Source: Lachnospiraceae bacterium
GTDB lineage: Bacteria > Bacillota > Clostridia > Lachnospirales > Lachnospiraceae
Direction: 5' to 3'
Assembly: GCA_017618075.1 (NCBI GenBank)
Contig: JAFZUY010000025.1
Span: 1 to 64,000 of the forward strand
DNA length: 64,000 nucleotides
Under the pieces are notes generated by a model. That model was given only the letters and a program-made list of their open reading frames with translations. It was not told the origin of the DNA and searched no databases. This document shows, piece by piece, positions 34,734 to 56,086 of the stretch. The position numbers and the translations under genes are program-made. Numbering within the stretch: position 1 is the stretch's first letter; each line of letters starts with the position of its first letter.

Positions 34734-35702
34734 TTAAGCCTTACCGTCTGAACCAAGAACGTTGATGATCTTGTGAGCAACCATGTCCTTAACAGCCTGA
34801 CGAGCGGGCTTTAAGTACTGACGAGGATCGAAGTGATCGGGATGCTCTGCGAAGTACTTTCTGATGTTACCTGTCATAGCAAGACGGATATCGGAGTCGA
34901 TATTGATTTTACATACAGCAAGTTCAGCTGCCTTACGAAGCTGCTCTTCAGGGATACCTACTGCATCGGGCATATTTCCGCCGTATGTGTTAACCATCTT
35001 AACGAATTCCTGAGGAACTGAAGATGAGCCGTGAAGAACGATAGGGAATCCGGGAAGTCTCTTGATGCACTCTTCAAGTACGTCGAAACGAAGGGGTGGC
35101 GGAACAAGGATTCCGTCAGCGTTTCTTGTACACTGAGCTGCTGTGAACTTGTATGCACCGTGTGATGTACCGATTGCAATTGCAAGTGAGTCACAACCTG
35201 TTCTGGAAACGAACTCTTCAACTTCTTCGGGTCTTGTGTAAGCTTCTTTGCCTGATTCAACAACAACTTCGTCTTCGATACCTGCAAGTGTACCAAGCTC
35301 TGCTTCAACAACTACGCCGTGAGCGTGAGCATATTCAACAACCTGCTTTGTAAGTGCGATGTTGTCTTCGAATGACTTGGAAGAAGCATCGATCATAACT
35401 GATGTAAATCCACCGTCGATACATGATTTGCAAAGTTCGAATGTATCGCCGTGATCAAGGTGAAGTGCGATAGGAATGTCGGGATTCTCGATAACTGCTG
35501 CTTCAACAAGCTTTACAAGATAAGTGTGGTTAGCATAAGCACGAGCGCCCTTGGAAACCTGAAGAATTACAGGGCTCTTTAATTCGCCTGCAGCTTCTGT
35601 AATACCCTGAACGATTTCCATATTGTTTACGTTGAAAGCGCCGACTGCATAGCCGCCGTCATAGGCTTTCTTAAACATTTCTGTTGTGGTAACTAAAGCC
35701 AT
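34734..35702 (-). CDS. Fructose-bisphosphate aldolase, class II
   Basis: A 322-residue zinc-dependent aldolase of glycolysis that splits fructose-1,6-bisphosphate. The motifs VGAFNVNNME, HLDHGDTFE (zinc and catalytic residues), EAELGTLAGIED, AIGTSHGAYKF, VLHGSSSVP and KINIDSDIR are all present. Codon choice is strongly biased, as expected for a highly expressed gene. The start lies behind AGGAGG, and a monocistronic unit is bounded by its own promoter and terminator. Confidence 0.95.
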   Translation of the reverse strand: MALVTTTEMFKKAYDGGYAVGAFNVNNMEIVQGITEAAGELKSPVILQVSKGARAYANHTYLVKLVEAAVIENPDIPIALHLDHGDTFELCKSCIDGGFTSVMIDASSKSFEDNIALTKQVVEYAHAHGVVVEAELGTLAGIEDEVVVESGKEAYTRPEEVEEFVSRTGCDSLAIAIGTSHGAYKFTAAQCTRNADGILVPPPLRFDVLEECIKRLPGFPIVLHGSSSVPQEFVKMVNTYGGNMPDAVGIPEEQLRKAAELAVCKINIDSDIRLAMTGNIRKYFAEHPDHFDPRQYLKPARQAVKDMVAHKIINVLGSDGKA

Positions 35703-43940: not shown

Positions 43941-44627
43941 TTACAAATGAAATCTCTTCTTAAACTCTGCCAACACTGTTCTTCCTTTAAATACTATCAA
44001 ACCGAAGAACGCGAGCACATTTATTACAAGGCATATCGACCATGTAAGAGGGGGCTTGTCGCGATAGAAGATAAGAAGTGCTATCCACGGCACTACGCCC
44101 ACCAGAATGTTTAAAAACATGTATATTAGCGAGTAGTCGGTAAAATGCTTGTCGATGAACGAAAGGATGAAATTAGCTACCAAATTTCCGCTGCAGAGGA
44201 TGGGTACGATGTATCCGGCTGTGATGCCAAGATACGGCAAATCCCATGCAAGTGTGATGAAGGCTTCGGAGAAGAAGCTTAGCACCACTATCGCAATCAT
44301 CGTAAAGAACATTGATTTTAGGAGGTTGTAATGCTTCCTGATGATAAATTCAATGATCCAGCCGATTACAAGGAGCCAGGCGACTACCAAAGGACTCCAT
44401 GATTTATGGTCCGCCTCAATGAAAAGGAAATCCAGAGCAAGGTTTATGATAATCGTAGCGATGAAGACAAACATGACTATCTTAAAAGCCTTTCGTCTAA
44501 GCCTTGTTTTAATCTCGATTTTGGGAATGTAATCCCTTTCGCCTTCGCCTGTTAACAGATTCTGGCAGAGAGGACATTTCTCAAGATTTCCACCGATATT
44601 TATTTTGCAGTGCGGACACTTTTTCAT
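43941..44627 (-). CDS. DUF6320-like membrane protein with zinc ribbon
   Basis: A 228-residue protein with an N-terminal zinc ribbon (CPHCKINIGGNLEKCPLC) and about six membrane helices from residue 50 onward. The architecture matches proteins I know as DUF6320, which occur beside condensation-type acyltransferases in Firmicutes. The function is unknown. It is the last gene of the minus-strand cluster behind the TetR, hydrolase and acyltransferase genes, which suggests a role in the same lipid or acyl pathway. Confidence 0.65.
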   Translation of the reverse strand: MKKCPHCKINIGGNLEKCPLCQNLLTGEGERDYIPKIEIKTRLRRKAFKIVMFVFIATIIINLALDFLFIEADHKSWSPLVVAWLLVIGWIIEFIIRKHYNLLKSMFFTMIAIVVLSFFSEAFITLAWDLPYLGITAGYIVPILCSGNLVANFILSFIDKHFTDYSLIYMFLNILVGVVPWIALLIFYRDKPPLTWSICLVINVLAFFGLIVFKGRTVLAEFKKRFHL

Positions 44628-44665
44628 TTTCCGCCACTCCTTTTTATATCAATTATTGTTTGTGT

Positions 44666-45922
44666 TTAGTCAACGACTTCGTTGGAATACAGAGTCATTT
44701 CTATGCCTTCGTCGGAGAGACTCTTAATAAAATCCCTAATAACCTGAGTGCTCTTATATGCGCTGCTGATACCGAGTACAAATTTGTCTTTGTAGGTCGA
44801 GCATACCACGAACATTGTACCTGTGGAGCAGTAAGCATTGTAAGAAACGATATAGTCGGAAAGCTCGTCGGGAACTTTTAATATTCCGAGGTTTGAAACC
44901 ACGGCCGTAACCTTTTTGGCCTTTTGGTTTGTACCGAATTTAACCACAGGATTTTTAAGGAATAAAGGAGCCAGTCTTATAAAGAATATTTTCTCTAACT
45001 TTTCATAGTCATACATTCTGGCTTCTACCATTTCGGGAGTCAGTTCATTTTTAAGATCCGCATTAAACTGCTCTGCCACACTTTCAAAGGTATCCGTACT
45101 CTTAAAAAGGTGGCTTACATTAACCGAATTGAAAAAGTTTCTCGATGTATCAGAAGGATAATAATTCCTTAAATTCACGGGCATACTGATTGTGACAGGC
45201 TGGATTCTGTTTAATACCGGCATGTCTTTATAAATACTCATCATAAGCTTCGAGGCGATGTATGATGTCAGAGAAACGTGAGTTTCCTTTGCTTTCGCCA
45301 AAACATCGCTTACGTTCATGTGAACTTCCATAAAACGAAGCTGATTGTAAGGAAGTTTCTGACCTTTTATGTGATAAGCTCTTCTTAATTTCTTCTTTTT
45401 TACGTCCTTGTTTTTCTTCGCAAAATAATGTCTGAAACTGTCCTGTGAAAGAGCAGCTTCCGAAGCGCCCGAGGTCATGGGGATATCGGGAATTTCGTTC
45501 GGATGTTTTAACTTAAGATAGTGATAAACAATCAGATTTAAGAACTCAATCGCACCGTTTCCGTCTGCGATGGCGTGGAAGAAATCAAGATTGATTCTGT
45601 TGTAATAATATGTCACGTGATAATGCAGTTTGCCGAATGTTTTCTGGTCATTTAACATGGGGCAGGGTCTCTCGTTTTCGATGGTTACGACAGGCTCGTC
45701 ATCTGTGGGCTCCATGTAATGCCAAAAGAGACCGCGAAGAATCGTCACCTGATACTGGGGACGCTCCTTGGCAGCATTCTTTACTGCAACGTTTAATATA
45801 TCTTCTTCGATGTCTTCGTTTAAAGTACAGGTAATGCGAAAAGATCTGGTGTCGCGGTCGTTTGCGCTCGCCAGAAAGACTTTTGCCACATTATCCATTC
45901 TGTACCATGTATCGTGAGCCAT
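44666..45922 (-). CDS. Condensation-domain-like acyltransferase
   Basis: A 418-residue protein of the chloramphenicol acetyltransferase/condensation/PapA superfamily. The catalytic HxxxDG motif is visible as FHAIADGNG near residue 110, and the C-terminal half has the structural region typical of the fold (VSNLGILKVP). Such enzymes move acyl groups from CoA or carrier proteins to hydroxyl or amino acceptors. The divergent gene set encodes an acyl carrier protein and chain-building enzymes, so it could use their product. That link is inference; alcohol acetyltransferase is the usual database label. Confidence 0.75.
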   Translation of the reverse strand: MAHDTWYRMDNVAKVFLASANDRDTRSFRITCTLNEDIEEDILNVAVKNAAKERPQYQVTILRGLFWHYMEPTDDEPVVTIENERPCPMLNDQKTFGKLHYHVTYYYNRINLDFFHAIADGNGAIEFLNLIVYHYLKLKHPNEIPDIPMTSGASEAALSQDSFRHYFAKKNKDVKKKKLRRAYHIKGQKLPYNQLRFMEVHMNVSDVLAKAKETHVSLTSYIASKLMMSIYKDMPVLNRIQPVTISMPVNLRNYYPSDTSRNFFNSVNVSHLFKSTDTFESVAEQFNADLKNELTPEMVEARMYDYEKLEKIFFIRLAPLFLKNPVVKFGTNQKAKKVTAVVSNLGILKVPDELSDYIVSYNAYCSTGTMFVVCSTYKDKFVLGISSAYKSTQVIRDFIKSLSDEGIEMTLYSNEVVD

Positions 45923-45949
45923 TTTTAGTGGACTCTCCTTTAAACTTAG

Positions 45950-46939
45950 TTAGTATAATTCTTCAATAAATTTGCTGATTGATTCCATCGCACGAAGGGC
46001 CTTTTTAAAAGGCATCATCTGGAATACATGCCATGCGTCCTCGTACTCTTCGAGAGTAACGGTTACGGTGTCTTTTATGAGTTTTTCGTACAGATTATAT
46101 GCATCGGATTTTAAGATTTCATTCGAGCCGACCTGGATTAAGAAAGGCGGGAAGCCTTCGAAATCCGCGAAGAGAGGGCTGTATTTGGGATCGGCATAGT
46201 TGAAGCCGTAATCCTCAATCTTAAAATCTTTTATGTTTTCGTTGAATTTATCGTTTAAACCTACGAAGGAAAAACGCGAAGTCTGGATGTATTCCTTGGT
46301 AAGTATGGGATCCTGATCCTTACATGTTTTATAGGATTCGCCGGACATGGTCATATCTGTCCAGGGACTCATCAAAACAATGCCTTTGGGAAGAAGCCTT
46401 CCCTGAGCTTTTAATTTGAGTGCAAGTTCGAGTGCGAGGTTTCCGCCTGCCGAATCGCCGATTAGTACGACTTCTCTGGCGCCGAAACCAAGCTGCATGA
46501 GGTAATTCCAAACAGTCAGCGCATCTTCGATGGCTGCGGGATAGGGATTCTCTGGAGCGAGACGATATTCAAAAGACATTACTTCCATACCTGTGTTTAA
46601 GGCAAGTTTTGCTGCGAGAACTCTCGCATATTTAAGGCTGCCGCAGGTATAACCGCCGCCGTGACAGTACATGATGATATGCCTTTTATCATGTTTGTAT
46701 TCAGGTCTGACCCATTCGCAGGGGATGCCCTTCACCGTAAAATCATCGGTTTCGATGTTGTTTGAAAGTGTTGACAAGGTCGCAAACAAATCCTGACCCG
46801 CGCGCTGTTTTTTGATATCTTCAAGCGAAATCGAATCTCCTGACGAAGAAACCGCGTGGATGGATTTTACCGCCTTCATCAAAGGCGACATCTGATTGTC
46901 TTCAGTTTCCTGTTTTACAAATCTGATAAGTCTGCTCAT
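45950..46939 (-). CDS. Alpha/beta hydrolase (HSL-type esterase)
   Basis: A 329-residue hydrolase of the hormone-sensitive-lipase family. The oxyanion motif HGGGY, the nucleophile elbow GDSAGGN, the acidic residue region FPPFLIQVGSNE and a final histidine (EDAWHVFQMM) are all visible. It cleaves short-chain esters in family members. It lies 27 bases upstream of the acyltransferase gene in the same operon, which suggests making and breaking of the same ester type. Confidence 0.82.
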   Translation of the reverse strand: MSRLIRFVKQETEDNQMSPLMKAVKSIHAVSSSGDSISLEDIKKQRAGQDLFATLSTLSNNIETDDFTVKGIPCEWVRPEYKHDKRHIIMYCHGGGYTCGSLKYARVLAAKLALNTGMEVMSFEYRLAPENPYPAAIEDALTVWNYLMQLGFGAREVVLIGDSAGGNLALELALKLKAQGRLLPKGIVLMSPWTDMTMSGESYKTCKDQDPILTKEYIQTSRFSFVGLNDKFNENIKDFKIEDYGFNYADPKYSPLFADFEGFPPFLIQVGSNEILKSDAYNLYEKLIKDTVTVTLEEYEDAWHVFQMMPFKKALRAMESISKFIEELY

Positions 46940-46987: not shown

Positions 46988-47566
46988 CTATTTTGCCACA
47001 TTGGTAAGCATAAGCTCTACGACGCCGTCGAGCATTTCGATACCGTGTTCGAGAGTGTCCACAGGGTCATCGCTTGATTTGCCTCTGAGCCATTCCACGG
47101 TGGTTTCGGCGAATAATTTTGAAAAGAAATATGCAAGTCTCTTTTTTTCTTTTTCGCTTACCTTTTTGCCGGTAGGCACAATCTTTGTCTCGTAAAGATT
47201 GTCTATATTCTGATAAGCCATTTTCGATACGACATCAACGATATAGTCTCCGAACGCGTCACGTCCCATTGAATTAAAAAGATTTCTTATAAATATTTCA
47301 TTTTTTCTCGCATAGGCTCCGACGATTCTTAGGTTTGATTTCCAGGAGCCGGGAGAGGAGAAATCAAGGTTTACGAAAAGCTTTTCCGCCTTGACGTAGA
47401 TGATTTCCTCTTTGAGAGAATAGAGGTCCTGATAATAGTAATAAAATGTGTTTCTGTTGATTTTGCAGTTGTCGCAAACCTGTTTTATGGTGATTTTATC
47501 CATGGGAATACTTTGGGCAAGTTCGACAAAGCTGTCCATTATGGCTTTTTTAGTAAAATTTGACAT
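46988..47566 (-). CDS. TetR/AcrR-family regulator
   Basis: A 192-residue regulator. The N-terminal helix-turn-helix is clear (ITIKQVCDNCKINRNTFYYYY), followed by a helical ligand domain of the DhaS-like type. It lies between the minus-strand acyltransferase set and the divergent ketosynthase set, and a near-perfect palindrome covers the spacer of its probable promoter. It may repress its own operon and perhaps the divergent genes, with an acyl-CoA or product as ligand. Confidence 0.82.
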   Translation of the reverse strand: MSNFTKKAIMDSFVELAQSIPMDKITIKQVCDNCKINRNTFYYYYQDLYSLKEEIIYVKAEKLFVNLDFSSPGSWKSNLRIVGAYARKNEIFIRNLFNSMGRDAFGDYIVDVVSKMAYQNIDNLYETKIVPTGKKVSEKEKKRLAYFFSKLFAETTVEWLRGKSSDDPVDTLEHGIEMLDGVVELMLTNVAK

Positions 47567-47785: not shown

Positions 47786-48538
47786 ATGAAGGTTTTACTC
47801 ATAAACGGAAGCATGAGAGGAAATCAAAGTTCGTCCCTCAAGGTGGCCGAAGCTTTCGTTCGCGGAATGGTATCGGAAAACGGTGAAGAGAATACCGAAG
47901 TCGTTAAGATCAATTTACGCGAGAAAAATATCGAGCATTGCTACGGCTGCTTTTGCTGTTGGAAGTTAAATAAGGGCGAATGCATCATAAGAGACGATAT
48001 GGATGAGATCAGAAAACTCGTACTTGAGTCGGATGTGATTATTGAAAGTTTTCCTCTTTATTTTTTTGGGCTTCCGTCTAAAATGAAAGCCTTTATGGAC
48101 AGAATGATTAATTTCGTGTCGGAATACAGAGCCGTCAACGGGGATGAGGCTACGGGAAGATTCTTACACGAGATGAGATATCCGGAATTAATGAATAAAA
48201 AGCTTGTTCTTGTTTCCGCATGCGGATATGAGGAAACCGTGGACTGTTATGATGCGGTTATCGACCAGTTCGACAAAATCTGCGGTCACGACAATTACAC
48301 GAGAATATTCGTACCTCAGGGAGGAATGCTCGCGGAGAAAACATTCGAGAACAAAATTGCAAGGTACATGATTAAATTTGAGGAAGCCGGAAAGGAATTC
48401 GTAAGGTGCAAAAAACTTTCGAAGGAGACGGAAGAGAAGCTGAGTGTTCCGATGCTCGGACACAATACTTTTGCACAGGCCATAAATCTTAACTGGGACG
48501 AACCCGGTGTAGGCCCTTACGGAAAGGTTGTTAAGTGA
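47786..48538 (+). CDS. NAD(P)H-dependent FMN reductase/flavodoxin-fold protein
   Basis: A 250-residue flavodoxin-like protein. The FMN-phosphate loop INGSMRGNQSSS is at the N-terminus, followed by the CYGCFCCWK motif typical of the iron-sulfur flavoprotein-like subfamily and the FMN-isoalloxazine region SFPLYFFGLPSKMKAFMDR. It is the first gene of the ketosynthase set and overlaps the acyltransferase gene by one base. It could reduce an intermediate or supply electrons. It is not a recognisable enoyl reductase. Confidence 0.78.
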   Translation: MKVLLINGSMRGNQSSSLKVAEAFVRGMVSENGEENTEVVKINLREKNIEHCYGCFCCWKLNKGECIIRDDMDEIRKLVLESDVIIESFPLYFFGLPSKMKAFMDRMINFVSEYRAVNGDEATGRFLHEMRYPELMNKKLVLVSACGYEETVDCYDAVIDQFDKICGHDNYTRIFVPQGGMLAEKTFENKIARYMIKFEEAGKEFVRCKKLSKETEEKLSVPMLGHNTFAQAINLNWDEPGVGPYGKVVK

Positions 48539-49254
48539 TGTTAAAAAAATTAAACTGGGCATTCGAGTCCGTAATAATATTCTTTCTATATGTAGGAACG
48601 TGGCCCGTACTTCGAATACTTTATCCGAGAAGAATTATCTGGGAAGATAAAAAAGCATCAACAGCGGTAATGAAGAAACCCTGTGTAATTTATTCAAACC
48701 ATACGGGTTATTCAGACGGCTTGTTCGCATTTGATATTTTACGAAAGTTTTATCCGTACACATTCATCGGCAAAGACTGGTACGAAAAGAACAAACTTTT
48801 CCACAGACTGTTAATGCACAGAAGATATATTCCTCTTGACAGAGAACAGATGGATACATCGTGGCTGATGAAGGGAAAGAAAGTAATAGACGACGGATAC
48901 AGCATTTTCTTCTTCCCTGAAGGACATACCTCAAAGGACGGTTTGTTACTTGAATTCCAGCCGGGATTTTTAATGCTCGCAAAACAGAGCAATATTCCGC
49001 TTGTTCCGATCTGTCTTGACAGAAAGGTAGATTTCTTCAAGCCCGTCAGAGTAATCATCGGAAAGCCTATTTATATCGACTTTAAAAAGGAACCCGGCAG
49101 ACCTTCGGTGGTTCTTAAAAAATATGCAGAGGTTTGCAAGGATGCAATCATCGATCTAAAAGACAGATACGGCAATCCTAAATTCGTAACCGACGATGTA
49201 ATCAAATACAGAGAAAAGGTCGCCAATAAAGAAGCCGACGAGACGGCCGTTTAA
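48538..49254 (+). CDS. PlsC-like lysophospholipid acyltransferase
   Basis: A 238-residue membrane-associated acyltransferase. The catalytic HxxxxD motif is His55-Asp60 (NHTGYSD), and the glycerol-phosphate-binding motif FFPEGHTS lies near residue 123. An N-terminal hydrophobic segment (10-28) anchors it. Members transfer acyl groups from CoA or ACP to lysophosphatidate or related acceptors. Its stop-start overlap with the flavoprotein gene and its place directly before the ACP suggest it accepts the chain made by this cluster. Confidence 0.82.
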   Translation: MLKKLNWAFESVIIFFLYVGTWPVLRILYPRRIIWEDKKASTAVMKKPCVIYSNHTGYSDGLFAFDILRKFYPYTFIGKDWYEKNKLFHRLLMHRRYIPLDREQMDTSWLMKGKKVIDDGYSIFFFPEGHTSKDGLLLEFQPGFLMLAKQSNIPLVPICLDRKVDFFKPVRVIIGKPIYIDFKKEPGRPSVVLKKYAEVCKDAIIDLKDRYGNPKFVTDDVIKYREKVANKEADETAV

Positions 49255-49339
49255 GTAAGTTTATTAACCGAGGGGAACTCCGGAGGTTTATAAAATAAAT
49301 AAAAACAAATTATATTTCTTATTCAAAAGGAGAGTAAAA

Positions 49340-49588
49340 ATGAACGAGAAAGAACTCGCAATTGCTGCAAGAATCAAAGAGATGTTGTCAGAGAATTTAA
49401 GAATTCCCGCAGAAGAACTTGATTATGAAATCCCTCTTTTCGGTGACGGAATCGGTCTTGATTCAGTTGATTCACTTGAAATCATCGCTTGCATCGACTC
49501 AGAATACGGTGTAGCTATGACAGGTGTTGCAAAAGAGAACTTCTACAACATTACAAGTCTCACAAAGTACGTAGTAGAAAACATGTAA
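49340..49588 (+). CDS. Acyl carrier protein, polyketide-like
   Basis: An 82-residue acyl carrier protein. The phosphopantetheine attachment serine is Ser42 in the motif GLDSVDSLE. The preceding segment LFGDGIGLDS differs from the common fatty-acid ACP motif (LGADSLD) and recalls ACPs of aryl-polyene and similar type II clusters. It lies 85 bases after the acyltransferase gene and has a strong AAAGGAGAG site. A GC-rich hairpin follows, which may make this small protein more abundant than the synthase. Confidence 0.88.
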   Translation: MNEKELAIAARIKEMLSENLRIPAEELDYEIPLFGDGIGLDSVDSLEIIACIDSEYGVAMTGVAKENFYNITSLTKYVVENM

Positions 49589-49597
49589 TTATTTTAT

Positions 49598-49623
49598 GAT
49601 GCCTTCCCGCTTGGGAGGGCATC
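49598..49623 (+). other. Stem-loop between ACP and ketosynthase genes
   Basis: An 11-bp stem GATGCCTTCCC/GGGAGGGCATC with the tetraloop GCTT and no T-run. It could stabilise the ACP message end or act as a processing site, a common way to overproduce the carrier protein relative to the synthase. Confidence 0.6.
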
Positions 49624-49651
49624 AACTAAAGTTTAAAAGGAGATTATCCAA

Positions 49652-52033
49652 ATGAGTAAGAACATCAATGCCAGATGCGTTGTTACAGGCTTAGGAATGA
49701 TCAATGCAATCGGTAAAAATGTTGAAGAATGCTGGGAGAATGCCCTTAAAGGCACACCCGGAATAGATAAAACAAGAAGTGTAAATTCAGATGACTGTTA
49801 CGCACATCTCGGAGCTGAAGTAAAAGATTCAGACATTGAGATGAACGATAAGGTAGACAGAGTTTCAATGCTCTGCTTACAGGCTTCAAAGGAAGCACTT
49901 AACGATGCAGGTATTACAGATGCAAACGTAGATGCAGCACGTTTCGGCGTTATTATGGGAAGCTGTGTCGGCGGCGTCGTAAGTATTGAAAACTACATCG
50001 AAAAAGGCGAAAAGACAGAAGATATTAATAAGATGACAATCGCATCCATCGCAAACCATGTTGCAAACATGGCAGGCGCAAAGGGTGTCGTTACAAATAT
50101 AGGTAATGCGTGTGCGGCAAGTACAATGAGTGTTGCTTATGCATGCGAACTCATCAGAGCAGGAGTTGGCGATGTATTTATCGCTGGCGGTGCAGATGCT
50201 TTTGCAAGCGTTCCCTTCGCAGGATTTACCGCACTTCATGCTCTTTCAGAAAACCCCTGCTCACCTTTTAACCATTCAAACGGTATCACATTAGGTGAAG
50301 GTGCAGGCGCAATTATCGTTGAGTCTTATGAGCATGCAAAGGCCAGAGGCGCAAAGATTTACTGCGATGTTTTATCAGCAGGTATTTCTTCCGATGCTCA
50401 TCACATTACAGCTCCCAGACCTGACGGAATCGGCCAGATGTATGCAATCAGAAGAGCACTTGATAAATCAGGTGTTGATAAGAAAGACCTTGATTACATT
50501 AACGCACACGGAACAGGAACAGCCAAGAACGACGAAGCAGAGTTCCTTTCAATTCATACAATTTTTGATGATGCAAACGATCACTTAAGCGTTTCATCTA
50601 CTAAGGCAATGGTTGGTCACTGCCTCGGTGCAGCAGGCGCAATCGAAGCCGTTTATGCAATAAGAGCCCTGACGGATAACAAGGTTCCGCCCACAATCGG
50701 TTACACGAAAGAAGATCTTGAAGCCTTAAAAGAAAAGGCAGGAAAGATTGACTTTATGCCCAACGAAATGAAGGCTAAGGAACTTAATTACGTAATGAGC
50801 AACTCCTTCGCATTCGGCGGAAGCAACGCAAGTATCATCTTCGCAAAGAACGAAGGTAAGATGAGCGAGAGTGAAAACAACGAAGACATTTATATCACAG
50901 GTATGGGTATTGTTTCTCCCATCGGCAACGGCATCGAAAACTATATCGAAAAGGTTAAAGCCGGTGAGACAATTACTTCCAACAATCTTTCTTCAGAACT
51001 TGGCAAAGAAGATTTTGACAAATACGATATCAAGCTTGCTTTCTACAGAAAACTCGACAAGCTTTCAACAATGCAGGTTGTATCGGGAATTGAAGCAATC
51101 AACAATGCAGGCTTCACATTCAACGATGAAAATGCGGAAGATTTCGGTATGATAATCGGTACAGGCGACGGCCCTCTTACAACCGTTTACGAGTTCCAGG
51201 ATCATATTTCCAAGGAAGGCACACAGAACGGTTCGGCATTCAACTTCCCGAACACCGTTTACAACGCAGCAGGCGGATATCTTTCAATTAAGACCGGCAT
51301 GAGAGGCTACAACGTTACAATCACAAACGGCAGCCAGTCAGGTCTTTCGTCAATCTGCTATGCGGCAAATGAAATCAGACAAAACAGAACAGTTGCAATG
51401 CTTGCTTCGGGTACTGACGAAAACAGCGCAGTAATGAACAAGCTTTATACACAGTTAGGACTCATAAAAGAAGCAAAGACGGACATTTACGGAGACGCCA
51501 ACGCAATGAACCTCTCCGACGGTTCCGTTACAATCGCACTTGAAAGCGCATCACAGGCAGCATCACATTCTGCCAAGAAGTATGCAAAGGTCGCAGGCTT
51601 CGCACAGACACACGAAGGTGTTGAATACGGTACTGTAGCAGGTTCTGACGAAGGTCTTGCTAATGCAATCAAAGAAGCATGCGCAGATGCAGGAATCACA
51701 GTAGATAAGATTGATGCGGTATTCGGTTTCGGTAACGGTGTTAACGAAGTAGATACACTTGAAAAGAATGTATATTCAAATGTATTCGGCAAGGAAATCG
51801 CAGTCATCAACGTAAAAGATTACGTAGGTGAAGCAAGAGCGGCAGCAGCTACACTTTCTGCAGCACACGCAGCATTAACTCTTGCAGGCGAGCTTGGCGA
51901 TTCACAGGATGCTTACTTCATTGCAGGCGGTAATGTTCGTAAAGATAAAGTCGATACAAAGAACTTTGAATATGTAATTGCTACATCCTACGGTGTAGGC
52001 GGATCCTACAGCGCAGTAGTACTTCAGAAATAA
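49652..52033 (+). CDS. Ketosynthase fused to a chain-length-factor-like ketosynthase
   Basis: A 793-residue fusion of two thiolase-fold ketosynthases. The first (1-~400) is FabF-like and complete, with Cys154 (NACAAS), His286 (HGTGT), Lys318 and His323 (VGHCLGAAGA). The second (~410-793) starts YITGMGIVSPIG and keeps the fold, but the cysteine position is Ser561 (NGSQSG), the HGTGT motif is FGNGV, and the last histidine is Glu (VGEARAAAA). An inactive partner fused to an active one matches the KS-alpha/KS-beta pair of type II polyketide synthases, where the second subunit sets chain length. An in-frame ATG at 50861 with GAAGG upstream marks the likely old gene boundary. Confidence 0.85.
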   Translation: MSKNINARCVVTGLGMINAIGKNVEECWENALKGTPGIDKTRSVNSDDCYAHLGAEVKDSDIEMNDKVDRVSMLCLQASKEALNDAGITDANVDAARFGVIMGSCVGGVVSIENYIEKGEKTEDINKMTIASIANHVANMAGAKGVVTNIGNACAASTMSVAYACELIRAGVGDVFIAGGADAFASVPFAGFTALHALSENPCSPFNHSNGITLGEGAGAIIVESYEHAKARGAKIYCDVLSAGISSDAHHITAPRPDGIGQMYAIRRALDKSGVDKKDLDYINAHGTGTAKNDEAEFLSIHTIFDDANDHLSVSSTKAMVGHCLGAAGAIEAVYAIRALTDNKVPPTIGYTKEDLEALKEKAGKIDFMPNEMKAKELNYVMSNSFAFGGSNASIIFAKNEGKMSESENNEDIYITGMGIVSPIGNGIENYIEKVKAGETITSNNLSSELGKEDFDKYDIKLAFYRKLDKLSTMQVVSGIEAINNAGFTFNDENAEDFGMIIGTGDGPLTTVYEFQDHISKEGTQNGSAFNFPNTVYNAAGGYLSIKTGMRGYNVTITNGSQSGLSSICYAANEIRQNRTVAMLASGTDENSAVMNKLYTQLGLIKEAKTDIYGDANAMNLSDGSVTIALESASQAASHSAKKYAKVAGFAQTHEGVEYGTVAGSDEGLANAIKEACADAGITVDKIDAVFGFGNGVNEVDTLEKNVYSNVFGKEIAVINVKDYVGEARAAAATLSAAHAALTLAGELGDSQDAYFIAGGNVRKDKVDTKNFEYVIATSYGVGGSYSAVVLQK

Positions 52034-52044
52034 AGGGGAAAAAC

Positions 52045-52788
52045 ATGGATAACGAAAAGAAAATTGCTCTTGTAACCGGCGCAAGCCGCGGTATCGGAAG
52101 AGCATGTGCCATAGCACTCGGAAAGAAAGGCTATACGGTCATCATCAACTACAATTCAAACGAAGATGCAGCAAACGAAGTTAAGAGCATCATCGAAGGT
52201 TTTGGCAGCGAGGCTGATATTTACAAAGCAAATGTTGCAAATCTTGATGAAGTTAAGCCCATGTTTCGTGAGATTACCAAAAAGTACGGCAAGATTGACG
52301 TGCTTGTAAACAACGCAGGCATCGTAAAAGACGAATATGTACTTATGATGACACCCGATACGATTGATAAATGTCTCGACCTGAACATCAAGGGTTATAT
52401 GTACTGCTCACAGCAGGCAGCACTTAAGATGTTCTCAAAGAAAAAAGGCTGCATCATCAATGTATCTTCGGTAAGCTCCAAGCTTGCCGTAGCAGGCCAG
52501 AGCGTATACTCGGCTACAAAGGGTGCCGTTAATTCAATGACAGCTACAATGGCCAAGGAACTTGCTCCTTACGGTATCAGAGTAAATGCGGTAGCTCCCG
52601 GATTTATCGGAACGGATATGGTTGAAAAGCTTCCCGAAGAGAAGAAGACAGAATACCTTGATACAATTCCGATGAAGAGATTCGGTACACCCGAAGAAGT
52701 CGGCGAAGTTGTTGCAATGCTTGCAAGCGACGAAGCTGCATACATCACAGGTCAGGTGCTTGTAATCGACGGCGGATTAAGCCTGTAA
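52045..52788 (+). CDS. 3-oxoacyl-ACP reductase (FabG-like)
   Basis: A 247-residue short-chain dehydrogenase with the NAD(P) motif TGASRGIGRA, NNAG near 90, the catalytic Ser in NVSSVSSK and the YxxxK motif YSATKGA near 155. The C-terminal GQVLVIDGG is typical of FabG. It reduces the beta-keto group after each extension cycle. It lies 11 bases after the ketosynthase fusion and is surely part of the same operon. Confidence 0.92.
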   Translation: MDNEKKIALVTGASRGIGRACAIALGKKGYTVIINYNSNEDAANEVKSIIEGFGSEADIYKANVANLDEVKPMFREITKKYGKIDVLVNNAGIVKDEYVLMMTPDTIDKCLDLNIKGYMYCSQQAALKMFSKKKGCIINVSSVSSKLAVAGQSVYSATKGAVNSMTATMAKELAPYGIRVNAVAPGFIGTDMVEKLPEEKKTEYLDTIPMKRFGTPEEVGEVVAMLASDEAAYITGQVLVIDGGLSL

Positions 52789-52816
52789 AGAAAAGAAAAT
52801 TCCGGAGGTTTCTTTT

Positions 52817-53260
52817 ATGATGAATATCAACGAAGTTCAGAAAAGAATTAAACAGCGTCCTCCTTTTCAGATGATTGAAAAGGTTGTTGAAATAAGAGGC
52901 GGAGAATATGCAAAGGGAATCAAAAATGTTTCCATTAATGAGCCTTATTTTATGGGACATTTTCCCGATGCTCCGATAATGCCGGGCGTACTTATCGTTG
53001 AGGCATGTGCACAGCTTTGTTCTGTAACAATCGAGAGTGACGGAACAGACGACAGTAAGATCTACGTGCTTCTTAAATGTGACGAGTTTAAGTTCGTAAA
53101 ACCTGTTCTTCCCGGAGATACACTTACGATAGAAGTTACAAAGGACGGCGGCGGAGCAGGACTTGTAAAATTTGACTGCAAGGCATTTGTTGACGGCGAG
53201 ATAAGAGCTAAAGGAAAACTCGCATTCTGTGCTGTTGATAAGGCTAATATATACGGATAA
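52817..53260 (+). CDS. 3-hydroxyacyl-ACP dehydratase (FabZ-like)
   Basis: A 147-residue hot-dog-fold dehydratase. The catalytic His and Glu are in MGHFPDAPIMPGVLIVEACAQ, spread over residues ~48-68. It removes water from 3-hydroxyacyl-ACP to give a trans-2-enoyl chain. Because the cluster has no enoyl reductase, repeated cycles would leave double bonds in place unless an enzyme encoded elsewhere reduces them. GGAGG sits eight bases before the ATG at 52817; a second ATG follows at once. Confidence 0.92.
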   Translation: MMNINEVQKRIKQRPPFQMIEKVVEIRGGEYAKGIKNVSINEPYFMGHFPDAPIMPGVLIVEACAQLCSVTIESDGTDDSKIYVLLKCDEFKFVKPVLPGDTLTIEVTKDGGGAGLVKFDCKAFVDGEIRAKGKLAFCAVDKANIYG

Positions 53261-53316
53261 GTTAGGAATAAAGCTTAAATCATTTTACTAGTTTTTTATA
53301 CGAGAGGAGATTAAAG

Positions 53317-54273
53317 ATGAGCAAACGAGTATTTATGTTCCCGGGACAGGGATCGCAGTACATCGGAATGGGAAAGGAAATTTACGAGACTTTTCCGAAA
53401 GCAAAGGAAGTTTTTGACAAAGCTTCCACAATCACAGGGCTTGACGTAGCCGCAATGTGTTTTGAAGAAAACGAAAAAATCAATATTACAGAGTATACGC
53501 AGATTTGTATGCTGACAGTTGAAGCAGCACTTTTCGCAGTACTTGAAGAAAAGGGCATTACATACGATCTGACAGCAGGATTATCCTTAGGCGAATACGG
53601 TGCACTTATTGCATCGGGTGCAATGAGCATGGAAGATGCTTTTGCAATCGTTCGTAAAAGAGGTATCTACATGCAGAACGCAGTTCCCGAAGGTGGCGGA
53701 ATGAGCGCTGTAATCGGACTTGATGCTTCCGTAATAGAAGATGCTTGTGCTGAGGTAATGGATAATAAGGATATGTACGATAAGGGGGACAGCTCTTTAC
53801 CTTTCACTGTATCTGTAGCAAACTACAACAACCCCAAGCAGTCCGTTATTACAGGAAGAAAAGATGCGGTTCAGGCAGCAGGAAAGATTCTTGAAGAAAA
53901 GGGTGCATTAAAAGTTGTTGAACTTAATGTATCAGGACCTTTCCATTCAGCTCTTTTGGAAGGTGCCGGAGAGCAGCTCGCAGAGGCCTTAAAAGATATT
54001 GAATTAAGTGATATCAAAGTTCCTTACATCGCAAACGTAACCGCAGAATATGTAACCGATAAAGGCGATATCAAAGAGCTTTTAAAGAAGCAGGTATCCT
54101 CATCGGTTAAATGGCAGCAGTCACTCGAACTTATGATAAAAGACGGTGTGGACGAGTTTATCGAAATCGGTCCCGGACACACGCTTACAGGCTTCGTAAA
54201 GAAGATTGACCGCGGACTTAAGACAGTAAATATAGATACACTCGAAGATTTAAACAAGTTTATTGAAGCGTAA
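53317..54273 (+). CDS. Malonyl-CoA:ACP transacylase (FabD-like)
   Basis: A 318-residue acyltransferase that loads malonyl units onto the ACP. It shows FPGQGSQYIGMG at the N-terminus, the nucleophile serine in GLSLGEYGAL near residue 90 and the histidine in GPFHSALL near 208. A conserved Arg in the FVRKRG-like stretch AIVRKRGIYMQ supports malonyl specificity. It lies between the dehydratase and the carboxyltransferase that makes malonyl-CoA. Confidence 0.92.
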   Translation: MSKRVFMFPGQGSQYIGMGKEIYETFPKAKEVFDKASTITGLDVAAMCFEENEKINITEYTQICMLTVEAALFAVLEEKGITYDLTAGLSLGEYGALIASGAMSMEDAFAIVRKRGIYMQNAVPEGGGMSAVIGLDASVIEDACAEVMDNKDMYDKGDSSLPFTVSVANYNNPKQSVITGRKDAVQAAGKILEEKGALKVVELNVSGPFHSALLEGAGEQLAEALKDIELSDIKVPYIANVTAEYVTDKGDIKELLKKQVSSSVKWQQSLELMIKDGVDEFIEIGPGHTLTGFVKKIDRGLKTVNIDTLEDLNKFIEA

Positions 54274-54347
54274 TTTTATATAATTCTACTTTTATTTTGA
54301 CTGAAATTATGAGACTTGAAGATTAGAAAATTAAAGGGGATTATCAT

Positions 54348-56045
54348 ATGGGTTTATTTGATTTTAACAAAAAAGCAACCGTTAAAAAAACAGACATAGT
54401 AGTTTCTCCGGAATCTATTATATGTCCTGTTTGTAAAAAGGAAATATTCAAAGAAGAAGCCAAGCGCATGAAGTATGTCTGCCCGGAATGTAACTATTAC
54501 TTCAGGGTTAGAGCCAACAACCGTATCCGTATGGTTGTTGATGACGGTTCATTCGAAGCATGGTTTGATGATATACGCACCGAAAATCCGCTCAATTTTC
54601 CTGATTACGAAGGAAAGATTGAAGACACCATGGAAAAGACCAAACTTTCCGAAGGCGTAACAGTCGGAAGCGCGACTTTGCGTGGTGAAAAGATTGTAAT
54701 CGGTGTAATTGATTCCAGATTTCTCATGGGAAGTATGGGTCATGTTGTAGGCGAGAGAATTACTCTTGCTGTTGAAAGAGCTACAAAGGAAAAACTTCCC
54801 GTCATTCTTTTCTGCTGTTCGGGTGGTGCGAGAATGCAGGAAGGTATCGTATCCTTAATGCAGATGGCCAAAACAAGTGCCGCACTTAAGAAACATTCGG
54901 ATGCGGGTCTTTTATACATTTCCGTATTAACAGATCCGACCACAGGCGGTGTAACCGCATCGTTTGCAATGCTCGGAGACATTATCCTTGCAGAGCCCAA
55001 AGCATTAATCGGATTTGCGGGCCCGAGAGTAATCGAGCAGACAATCGGAGAAAAACTTCCCGAAGGTTTCCAGAGAGCTGAATTCCAGCTTGAGCACGGA
55101 TTTGTCGATGCGATTGTCGAGAGAGACAATTTAAGAAATGTACTTGCCAATCTGGTTAAGATGCACATTCGCAAAGAAGGCTACGCAAACTTCGATCCGC
55201 AGTTTGACAATGTAAGATACGATGCAACCGAACTCATGAAAGAGAGAGCAGCCAAGAGCAAGCCTTTAGGTGTATGGGATAAGGTTTGTGCTGCAAGACA
55301 GCTTTTCAGACTTCAGTCCGAAGATTATATAAATACGATTTTTGATGAGTTTATAGAACTTCACGGTGACAGATATTTCAGGGACGATCCCGCCATCATG
55401 GGAGGTATCGGATATCTTGACGGCCAGGCAGTAACCGTAATCGGTGTTAACAAGGGTAAGAGCCTTGAGGACTGCAAGAAACACAATTACGGCATGCCTT
55501 CACCCGAAGGATACAGAAAAGCTCTGCGTCTGATGAAGCAGGCAGAGAAATTCCACAGACCGGTTATTACTTTTGTAAATACATCAGGTGCATATCCCGG
55601 ACTTAAAGCCGAAGAAAACGGACAGGGCGAAGCGATTGCAAGAAACCTGTTTGAGATGGCTGGTTTGAAGACTCCGATTTTAACCATTATGATCGGAGAA
55701 GGCGGAAGCGGCGGTGCACTTGCACTTGCGGTAGGCAACGAAGTGTGGATGGAAGAGAATGCAACTTATTCGATTCTTTCACCCGAAGGCTTTGCATCCA
55801 TTCTCTGGAAGGATTCGAGCCGTTCCACAGAAGCTGCGGAAGTCATGAGAATCACAGCTCACGATATGAAGGAATTAAAAGTAATCGAGGACATTATTCC
55901 CGAATACGGAATGGCCGATGAAGATGCTCTTACATCGATTTCATCTTACATGAAAGGTCATATGAAAGAATTCCTTAAAAAGATGAATGAAAAGAGTATC
56001 GATCAAATCGTTGAGGAAAGATATACACGATTCAGAAAATTCTGA
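54348..56045 (+). CDS. Acetyl-CoA carboxylase carboxyltransferase, fused beta-alpha
   Basis: A 565-residue fusion of AccD and AccA. The beta part (1-~290) starts with a four-cysteine zinc ribbon (CPVCKKE and CPECNYY) and contains SGGARMQEG and [10 protein letters not shown]. The alpha part (~300-565) has [36 protein letters not shown] and [15 protein letters not shown]. It transfers the carboxyl group from carboxybiotin to acetyl-CoA. The biotin carrier and biotin carboxylase (AccB, AccC) are absent from the window, so they must come from elsewhere. A terminator follows directly. Confidence 0.9.
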
Positions 56046-56051
56046 TATAAT

Positions 56052-56086
56052 ACAAAGTGTCTGATGTTTCAGACACTTTGTTTTTT
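56052..56086 (+). terminator. Terminator of the ketosynthase-AccDA operon
   Basis: A perfect 13-bp stem ACAAAGTGTCTGA/TCAGACACTTTGT with a four-base loop is followed by Ts, seven bases after the AccDA stop codon. Confidence 0.92.

What the first reader, a model, noticed from the sequence alone, without database searches (positions are those of the whole stretch)
49340..56045. Type II polyketide-like operon with a ketosynthase/chain-length-factor fusion and no enoyl reductase
Seen: ACP, a 793-residue double ketosynthase whose second half lost Cys, His and His at the catalytic positions, ketoreductase, dehydratase, malonyltransferase and fused AccDA, ended by a strong terminator. Known: an active KS paired with an inactive KS is the hallmark of type II polyketide synthases, including aryl polyenes, and fatty-acid FabF has no such partner. 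The ACP motif LFGDGIGLDS also differs from fatty-acid ACPs. Inferred: without an enoyl reductase the product should be a conjugated polyene or another unsaturated acyl chain, passed on by the PlsC-like or condensation-type acyltransferases nearby. A single-chain KS-CLF in an anaerobic Firmicute would be unusual.
Basis: partly seen in the sequence, partly recalled or inferred. Interest (0 to 1): 0.8.

Follow-up and report, generated by a model that had tools for sequence, protein, structure and literature searches.

The report
Polyketide-style lipid-making operon in gut bacteria
These anaerobic gut and rumen bacteria carry a small set of genes, built around a fused pair of an active and an inactive chain-building enzyme, that probably makes an unusual unsaturated chain for their membranes instead of ordinary fatty acids; the product is still unknown.

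Summary
An operon at 47786-56045 encodes a flavodoxin-fold protein, a PlsC-type acyltransferase, its own ACP, a 793-aa KS-CLF fusion, KR, FabZ-type dehydratase, FabD and fused AccDA, and ends in a terminator. In 24 of 24 aligned fusions the first half keeps Cys-His-His and the second has lost it. The KS halves do not group with Lachnospiraceae FabF (p-AU 0.003); they fall with KSs of two Streptomyces highly-reducing-type clusters and beside NodE. Four of 14 relatives also hold a canonical FabH-FabK-FabD-FabG-FabF operon, so this is an added pathway. Best reading: a highly reducing type II PKS-like system making an unsaturated acyl chain for a membrane lipid. Two corrections: a flavodoxin-fold protein, distantly like an ene-reductase, accompanies 23 of 23 operons with enough flank, so "no reductase" is unsafe; and single-chain KS-CLFs also occur in Streptomyces and Bacillaceae. 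Unexpectedly, a 100%-complete genome of the same genus lacks FabK and canonical FabH but keeps this operon.

The parts
46988..47566 (-). TetR-family regulator (TetR_C_8), divergent, probable operon regulator
   Evidence: PF14278; a TetR-like gene lies within 10 kb of KS-CLF in 18 of 27 close-family loci
47786..48538 (+). flavodoxin-fold FMN protein with invariant C-X2-C-X2-C-X7-C; candidate C=C reductase
   Evidence: PF02525/PF03358; best solved relative 7d38 = flavone reductase FLR, E 5.2e-8; Cys invariant in 12 of 12 aligned; within 10 kb of KS-CLF in 22 of 27 close-family loci, the other five (L007, L009, L013, L072, L075) being cut near the operon
48535..49254 (+). PlsC-type (lyso)phospholipid acyltransferase, reads NHTGYSDG (HX4D motif, recalled)
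   Evidence: PF01553 8.6e-19; PlsC-type gene in 24 of 27 close-family loci; L009 and L013 are cut, L026 (E. eligens) has none and has PlsX
49340..49588 (+). dedicated acyl carrier protein (GLDSVD)
   Evidence: PF00550; best NCBIfam model PRK09184-type 44 bits, other ACP models under 28 bits, all below cut-off; only 27% identical over 41 aa to the FAS-block ACP
49652..50863 (+). KS half of the fusion (catalytic C154, H286, H323)
   Evidence: tree
50864..52033 (+). CLF half of the fusion (no Cys/His/His; invariant Gln one residue after the Cys column in 20 of 20 close-family rows)
   Evidence: tree
52045..52788 (+). 3-ketoacyl reductase (FabG-like)
   Evidence: PF13561 7e-69, TIGR01830 274 bits (below cut-off 298)
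52817..53260 (+). FabZ-like dehydratase
   Evidence: NF000582 141 bits over cut-off 113
53317..54273 (+). FabD malonyl-CoA:ACP transacylase; only one found in the genome
   Evidence: TIGR00128 296 bits; own-genome search found 1 match
54348..56045 (+). fused AccD-AccA carboxyltransferase
   Evidence: TIGR00515 369 bits, TIGR00513 336 bits; only other PF01039 match in the genome is a 480-aa frame on C14 (a lone AccA was not searched for)
56052..56081 (+). rho-independent terminator (13-pair stem, T tail)

Best explanation
[quoted passage not shown] Steps: AccDA and FabD supply malonyl-ACP, shared with fatty-acid synthesis in this genome (inferred from single copies). The KS half condenses, and the catalytically dead CLF half, held in the same chain, forms the other half of a pseudo-heterodimer and sets chain length (inferred by homology). 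KR reduces and FabZ dehydrates (inferred from families). No FabI/FabK-type reductase follows in the operon, so double bonds remain. The flavodoxin-fold protein then reduces or rearranges one or more of them, or regenerates a redox partner (speculative). The PlsC-type enzyme puts the chain on a lyso-phospholipid; in some genera a patatin-type lipase beside it would make the lyso-lipid (inferred from neighbours). Shown here: gene content, catalytic residues, phylogeny, conservation, co-occurrence. Not shown: activity, chain length, product, lipid.
For: Catalytic triad kept or lost as in KS/CLF pairs in 24 of 24. KS halves + Lachnospiraceae FabF as one clade rejected, p-AU 0.003. KS halves form a clade with KSs of two Streptomyces highly-reducing-type clusters (100/96), with NodE next (96/85); fused CLFs and the two HR-type CLFs together are split from all other rows at 97/83. 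The dead half is well conserved: mean column identity 74% over 11 rows. Canonical AccA/D-FabH-FabK-FabD-FabG-FabF operons on other contigs coexist with the KS-CLF operon in 4 of 14 relatives (G002, G005, G012, G013). Flavodoxin-fold gene in 23 of 23 and PlsC-type gene in 25 of 26 operons with enough flank, window included. Patatin-type gene within 10 kb in 5 loci. Rare in the family: 7 of 397 genomes at over 500 bits.
Against: FabD of this operon is the only one found in the window's genome and AccDA its only AccD-type frame besides a 480-aa carboxyltransferase, and five of 22 genomes with a close-family KS-CLF show no FabK, so at least part of the operon may do housekeeping work. The FLR-like protein could make the product saturated. 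The HR-type reference set is small (two Streptomyces loci, called HR by gene content); no aryl-polyene, ishigamide, Pfa or Amc KS-CLF was in the trees. The fused CLFs alone as one clade have only 92/61, several CLF branches are long, and one relative (L023) has no DH in its operon.
Confidence: 0.6

Rival explanations
1. In part of this lineage the operon is the main fatty-acid synthase: the KS-CLF fusion replaced FabF (and FabH), and the flavodoxin-fold protein replaced FabK as enoyl reductase.
For: G134 (same genus, 100% complete, 10 contigs) has no FabK-type match (best 21 bits) and only a FabH-like protein and a KS in a different cluster; G003, G004, G006, G007 lack FabK, FabH and any stand-alone KS; G031 (99% complete) has FabK but no stand-alone KS. 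FabD and AccDA sit in the operon in G134, G003, G004, G006 and G007. The flavodoxin-fold protein's best solved relative is an ene-reductase.
Against: The flavodoxin-fold gene is also present in FabK-positive genomes, so it does not appear as a replacement. The same operon core coexists with canonical FAS operons. Fatty-acid uptake could explain the losses. FabI/FabV-type reductases were not searched for. The KS of the other G134 cluster groups with FabFs and could serve as FabF. Completeness of G003, G004, G006 and G007 is not given.
Confidence: 0.17
2. The operon is the missing anaerobic route to ordinary mono-unsaturated fatty acids: KS-CLF takes over a dedicated unsaturated intermediate, and the flavodoxin-fold protein acts as isomerase or reductase.
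For: No dedicated unsaturated-fatty-acid enzyme had been found in Clostridia according to PMC2700279 of 2009 (start of abstract in search listing); operon has KR + DH without FabI/FabK, next to a phospholipid acyltransferase.
Against: Only 7 of 397 family genomes carry it at over 500 bits, too rare for a general solution; KS groups with HR-type KSs, not with FabF.
Confidence: 0.12
3. A small secreted or free metabolite of the cispentacin/coronafacic type (KS with cyclisation factor) rather than a lipid.
For: Weak matches to AmcF (261.7 bits), AmcB (25.1) and AmcE (57.3) models.
Against: All below cut-off; no aminotransferase or AMP-dependent acyltransferase in the window operon; phospholipid-type acyltransferases are the constant partners.
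Confidence: 0.05

Closest known systems
Highly reducing type II PKS KS-CLF (polyene type; here Streptomyces loci L103, L104)
   Same: Active KS + inactive CLF, own ACP; KS and CLF group together in the tree; the family is described as KS-CLF + KR + DH making polyenes (PMC10698177, passages read)
   Different: Single chain here; phospholipid acyltransferase and flavodoxin-fold partner; no NRPS or KASIII in the window operon; Lachnospiraceae
Single-chain KS-CLF of Streptomyces plasmid clusters (L092, L093, L102), Priestia (L027) and Pseudalkalibacillus (L101)
   Same: One-piece KS-CLF of 764-809 aa with ACP, KR and an annotated dehydratase nearby, 30-33% identity
   Different: These clusters variously add KASIII, extra KSs, dioxygenase, GCV-T-like or oxidoreductase genes and look like natural-product clusters; no PlsC annotated in the stretches shown
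PUFA synthase (PfaA-D)
   Same: KS-CLF didomain in one chain, KR, DH, malonyl transferase, enoyl reductase; some carry an AGPAT domain (PMC9702510, passages read)
   Different: Pfa are multidomain type I proteins; here all other activities are separate proteins; weak match to the PfaA model (TIGR02813 104 bits against cut-off 1010)
Aryl polyene synthase (ApeO-ApeC)
   Same: KS-CLF of polyene type; aryl polyenes occur in lipids (PMC8041823 and PMC8358021, start of abstracts)
   Different: No aryl starter genes among the window genes scanned; no second KS in the operon
NodE/NodF (Rhizobium)
   Same: KS + special ACP; nearest outside row to the KS clade, 96/85; recalled to make conjugated polyunsaturated acyl chains
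   Different: No CLF half; product goes on a lipo-oligosaccharide (recalled)

Membership tests
Highly reducing type II PKS | KS with intact Cys-His-His | tested here: met
   24 of 24 aligned fusions
Highly reducing type II PKS | Partner KS-like protein without the triad | tested here: met
   24 of 24; well conserved
Highly reducing type II PKS | KS and CLF group with polyene-type KS/CLF, not FabF | tested here: met
   (100/96 for KS with HR-type KS; 97/83 for CLF with HR-type CLF); FabF alternative p-AU 0.003. Only two HR-type reference loci, named HR from gene content
Highly reducing type II PKS | Own ACP, KR and DH beside KS-CLF | tested here: met
   for the window; L023 has no DH in its operon
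Highly reducing type II PKS | No enoyl reductase acting on the chain | tested here: inconclusive
   No FabI/FabK-like gene in the operon, but a constant flavodoxin-fold protein whose best solved relative is an ene-reductase
Highly reducing type II PKS | KS and CLF as two polypeptides forming a heterodimer | tested here: not met
   One 793-aa chain; pseudo-heterodimer not modelled because structure prediction was off
Highly reducing type II PKS | Polyene product | not testable with these tools
   needs biochemistry
Aromatic type II PKS CLF | Gln in place of the active-site Cys (seen in L095) | tested here: not met
   Cys column holds S/A/N/T/P/M in the 20 close-family rows; their invariant Gln is one residue later
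Housekeeping type II FAS (FabF) | KS clusters with FabF of the same family | tested here: not met
   p-AU 0.003
Housekeeping type II FAS (FabF) | FabK/FabI in the same operon | tested here: not met
   FabK lies on C28
Aryl polyene synthase | Aryl starter supply (lyase, ligase) and second KS | tested here: not met
   none among the 20 window proteins scanned (34734-35702, 36960-57278 and two further genes); an AMP-ligase beside the operon was seen only in the two g18 relatives
PUFA synthase | Multidomain PfaA-PfaC architecture | tested here: not met
   separate ORFs
Cispentacin AmcF-AmcG | AmcF model over cut-off | tested here: not met
   261.7 bits against 325

The most novel reading that the evidence does not exclude
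A bacterial lineage has replaced its canonical fatty-acid synthase by a polyketide-type one: the single-chain KS-CLF, with a flavodoxin-fold (FLR-like) protein as a new kind of enoyl reductase, makes the membrane acyl chains of FabK-less members such as G134.
Probability: 0.13. Interest if true: 0.88.

Novelty: new variant of a known kind. Interest (0 to 1): 0.6.

Why it matters
It points to an undescribed membrane-lipid pathway in gut and rumen Lachnospiraceae, including Lachnospira (Eubacterium) eligens. It also places single-chain KS-CLFs in this anaerobic family and raises a testable question: how members without FabK and FabH make or obtain acyl chains. The listings of my ten literature searches (PMC open-licence papers only) named no paper on this operon. 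A catalogue of KS-CLFs (PMC10132072, passages read) includes Firmicutes and gut metagenome sequences; whether these proteins are in its data set I could not see.

Tried and rejected
Housekeeping FabF operon: rejected by the tree test and by coexisting FAS operons. Aromatic type II PKS: rejected, different CLF site and no cyclase in the operon. Tandem duplication of the local FabF: the halves are 24% identical to each other and 38% and 23% to the own FabF, and they fall in separate clades. Fused and aromatic CLFs as one clade: not rejected in the first tree (p 0.25); all CLFs are one side of a branch at 84/80 in the second, so one CLF origin is neither shown nor rejected. One clade of all fused KS without HR-type KS is not rejected (p 0.47). 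A PDB search with a Streptomyces KS to obtain the ishigamide KS as a reference did not bring it up, so APE and ishigamide sequences are not in the trees. E. eligens paper searches gave nothing on the operon.

Limits and dropped rows: the search for related loci finds close relatives only and gave 20 loci; trees used 11 of them (L010-L012, L014-L016, L018, L019, L022-L024). Left out: near-identical or redundant L006, L007, L008, L009, L013, L017, L021 and partial L020, L025. The second tree used 14 of 26 fused proteins at hand and dropped 8 of the 21 single KS/CLF rows of the first (among them one odd Streptomyces KS without Cys that had joined the aromatic CLF on long branches). One search scored at most 4 candidates per genome and its match table was cut, so its 7 of 397 is a lower bound. 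The 8 genomes are those, own genome aside, whose listed CLF match lies in a frame over 700 aa. The two genome sets may overlap in species. For the flavodoxin count the five loci cut near the operon were left out (L075 has 11.7 kb upstream without the gene but ends 93 bp downstream; L072 ends 3.2 kb downstream), for the PlsC count L009 and L013. Own-genome accB/accC, a lone AccA, FabI and FabV were not searched.
Full report
What is there. The window is contig C43 of a 2.44-Mb draft genome, 89% complete. Related contigs are titled Lachnospiraceae, mostly MAGs from rumen and other animal guts, plus strain G41 and Eubacterium sp. MSJ-21. From 47786 to 56045, on the + strand, run a flavodoxin-fold protein, a PlsC-type acyltransferase, an ACP, a 793-aa double ketosynthase, a FabG-like KR, a FabZ-like DH, FabD and fused AccDA, with short gaps and a 13-pair terminator at 56052-56081. 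A TetR gene points the other way at 46988-47566.

The double ketosynthase. Its first half keeps Cys154, His286, Lys318 and His323. In the second half the columns of the Cys and the two His hold other residues. This is true of all 24 fusions aligned: the window, 19 other Lachnospiraceae of the close family, the distant G034, Priestia and two Streptomyces. In the 20 close-family rows the second half has an invariant Gln one residue after the Cys column; in the aromatic CLF of L095 the Gln sits in the Cys column itself. The second half is well conserved (mean column identity 74% over 11 rows), so it does not look like a decaying domain.

Phylogeny. In a 69-row tree all 24 fused KS halves form one clade (100/97) and all 24 fused CLF halves another (100/99). 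NodE is the nearest other row to the KS clade (99/89). A second tree (47 rows; 14 of 26 fused proteins) added KS-CLF pairs from two Streptomyces clusters that I read as highly reducing type from gene content (L103: ACP, KS, CLF-like, KASIII, carboxylase; L104: ACP, KS, CLF-like, FabG, isomerase, NRPS; the reading of the isomerase as a mark of cinnamoyl-type clusters is recalled). Their KSs fall inside the fused-KS clade (100/96). Their CLFs and the fused CLFs together are split from all other rows (97/83); the fused CLFs alone have 92/61. Some CLF branches are long and the reference set is small, so the fine order is not settled.

Single-chain KS-CLFs elsewhere. In the plasmid collection 16 of the 60 records listed (650 matched) show one-piece matches over 88-100% of the protein: 2 Lachnospira eligens, 4 Priestia megaterium, 9 Streptomyces and 1 Pseudalkalibacillus (rows H131-H146). 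In E. eligens ATCC 27750 the operon is on the 627-kb plasmid. PUFA synthases also carry a KS-CLF didomain and some an AGPAT domain (PMC9702510, passages read). So the fusion is not unique, but the relatives outside Lachnospira are only 30-33% identical.

Distribution. A profile of the CLF half found over 500 bits in 7 of 397 genomes of the family, the window's own included. The next fused frames are G120 (252 bits) and G034 (150 bits), and stand-alone KSs reach 149 bits. Only four candidates per genome were scored, so this is a lower bound. The system looks rare and patchy in the family.

Partners. In the census (27 close-family loci) the flavodoxin-fold gene lies within 10 kb of KS-CLF in 22; the other five are cut near the operon. 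With the window that is 23 of 23 with enough flank. A PlsC-type gene is present in 24 of 25 loci with enough flank, 25 of 26 with the window; E. eligens lacks it and has PlsX. A patatin-type gene is present in 5 loci. The flavodoxin-fold protein has an invariant C-X2-C-X2-C-X7-C in 12 of 12 aligned rows, recalled as typical of iron-sulfur flavoproteins. Its best solved relative is 7d38 (E 5.2e-8, about 107 residues), which is FLR, an ene-reductase that reduces the C2-C3 double bond of flavones (PMC7862272, passages read). The match is weak and covers about the first 107 residues, so the function is a lead only.

Other fatty-acid genes. Own genome: one FabD; one AccD-type frame, the operon's AccDA, plus a 480-aa carboxyltransferase on C14; no FabH by PF08541 or PF08545; and a separate block on C28, ACP-FabK-FabG-FabF-FabZ followed by an acyl-CoA synthetase whose best model is MbcS (382 bits, cut-off 850). 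In 14 relatives each genome has exactly one FabD match. By coordinates it is in the KS-CLF operon in 9 of the 14, in a canonical FAS operon in 4 (G002, G005, G012, G013), and on an unresolved contig end in G011. In those four no FabD or AccDA is seen in the KS-CLF operon (L014 is cut after its DH), so there the operon is clearly an addition to normal FAS. Of the other genera, G037 and G372 hold FabH-FabK-FabG-FabF-FabZ elsewhere.

FabK-less members. FabK-type matches (over 400 bits) are present in 11 of 15 genomes and 6 of 8. They are missing in G003, G004, G006, G007, G134 and G034 (67% complete, distant type); that is 5 of the 22 with a close-family KS-CLF. G134 is in the window's genus and 100% complete in 10 contigs. 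Its only other KS and its FabH-like protein (25% identical to FabH) sit together in a different cluster with an MBL protein, an epimerase-type reductase and AMP-ligases. Six of the 23 genomes show no stand-alone KS match (G003, G004, G006, G007, G011, G031); G011's FabK contig ends just after FabG, but G031 is 99% complete. Either these members live on outside fatty acids and keep this pathway for something else, or the KS-CLF system makes their acyl chains. This is the most surprising part and is not resolved here.

Mechanism. Best-supported reading, with steps marked in Best explanation: a highly reducing type II PKS-like synthase for an unsaturated chain that is esterified into a membrane lipid. 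Against it stand the shared FabD/AccDA, the possible ene-reductase and the FabK-less members. I give it 0.6.

Verdict. Observation confirmed, interpretation partly supported, new variant of a known kind, product unknown.

Noticed in passing
L004 7378-12711 (G000:C28): FabH-less FAS block ACP-FabK-FabG-FabF-FabZ followed by an acyl-CoA synthetase nearest MbcS; suggests priming from outside short or branched acids (rumen volatile fatty acids) in place of FabH.
   Followed up: partly
L077 5415-13558 (G134) and L032 2897-8424 (G008): Another cluster with FabF-like KS, metallo-beta-lactamase-fold and epimerase-type proteins and an AMP-binding-like protein; in G134 also a FabH-like protein, an ACP and an MbcS-like synthetase. 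Function unknown.
   Followed up: partly
G031 (L071, L080, L081): 99%-complete genome with FabK and the KS-CLF fusion but no stand-alone elongating KS found.
   Followed up: partly
window 43941-46939: DUF6320, alcohol-acetyltransferase-like and alpha/beta-hydrolase genes next to the operon, in 9 of 27 close-family loci, near relatives of the window.
   Followed up: partly
L070 14209-15750 and L071 13329-14870: In the g18 genomes the AccDA slot holds a 513-aa carboxyltransferase-like protein only 21% identical to AccDA.
   Followed up: no
L027 8013-10442, L101 8989-11283, L092 7705-10059: Single-chain KS-CLFs in apparently uncharacterised plasmid clusters of Priestia, Pseudalkalibacillus and Streptomyces.
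   Followed up: partly
L026 19068-26391: The E. eligens plasmid region also carries ftsZ and plsX, so this plasmid may be a chromosome-like second replicon.
   Followed up: no
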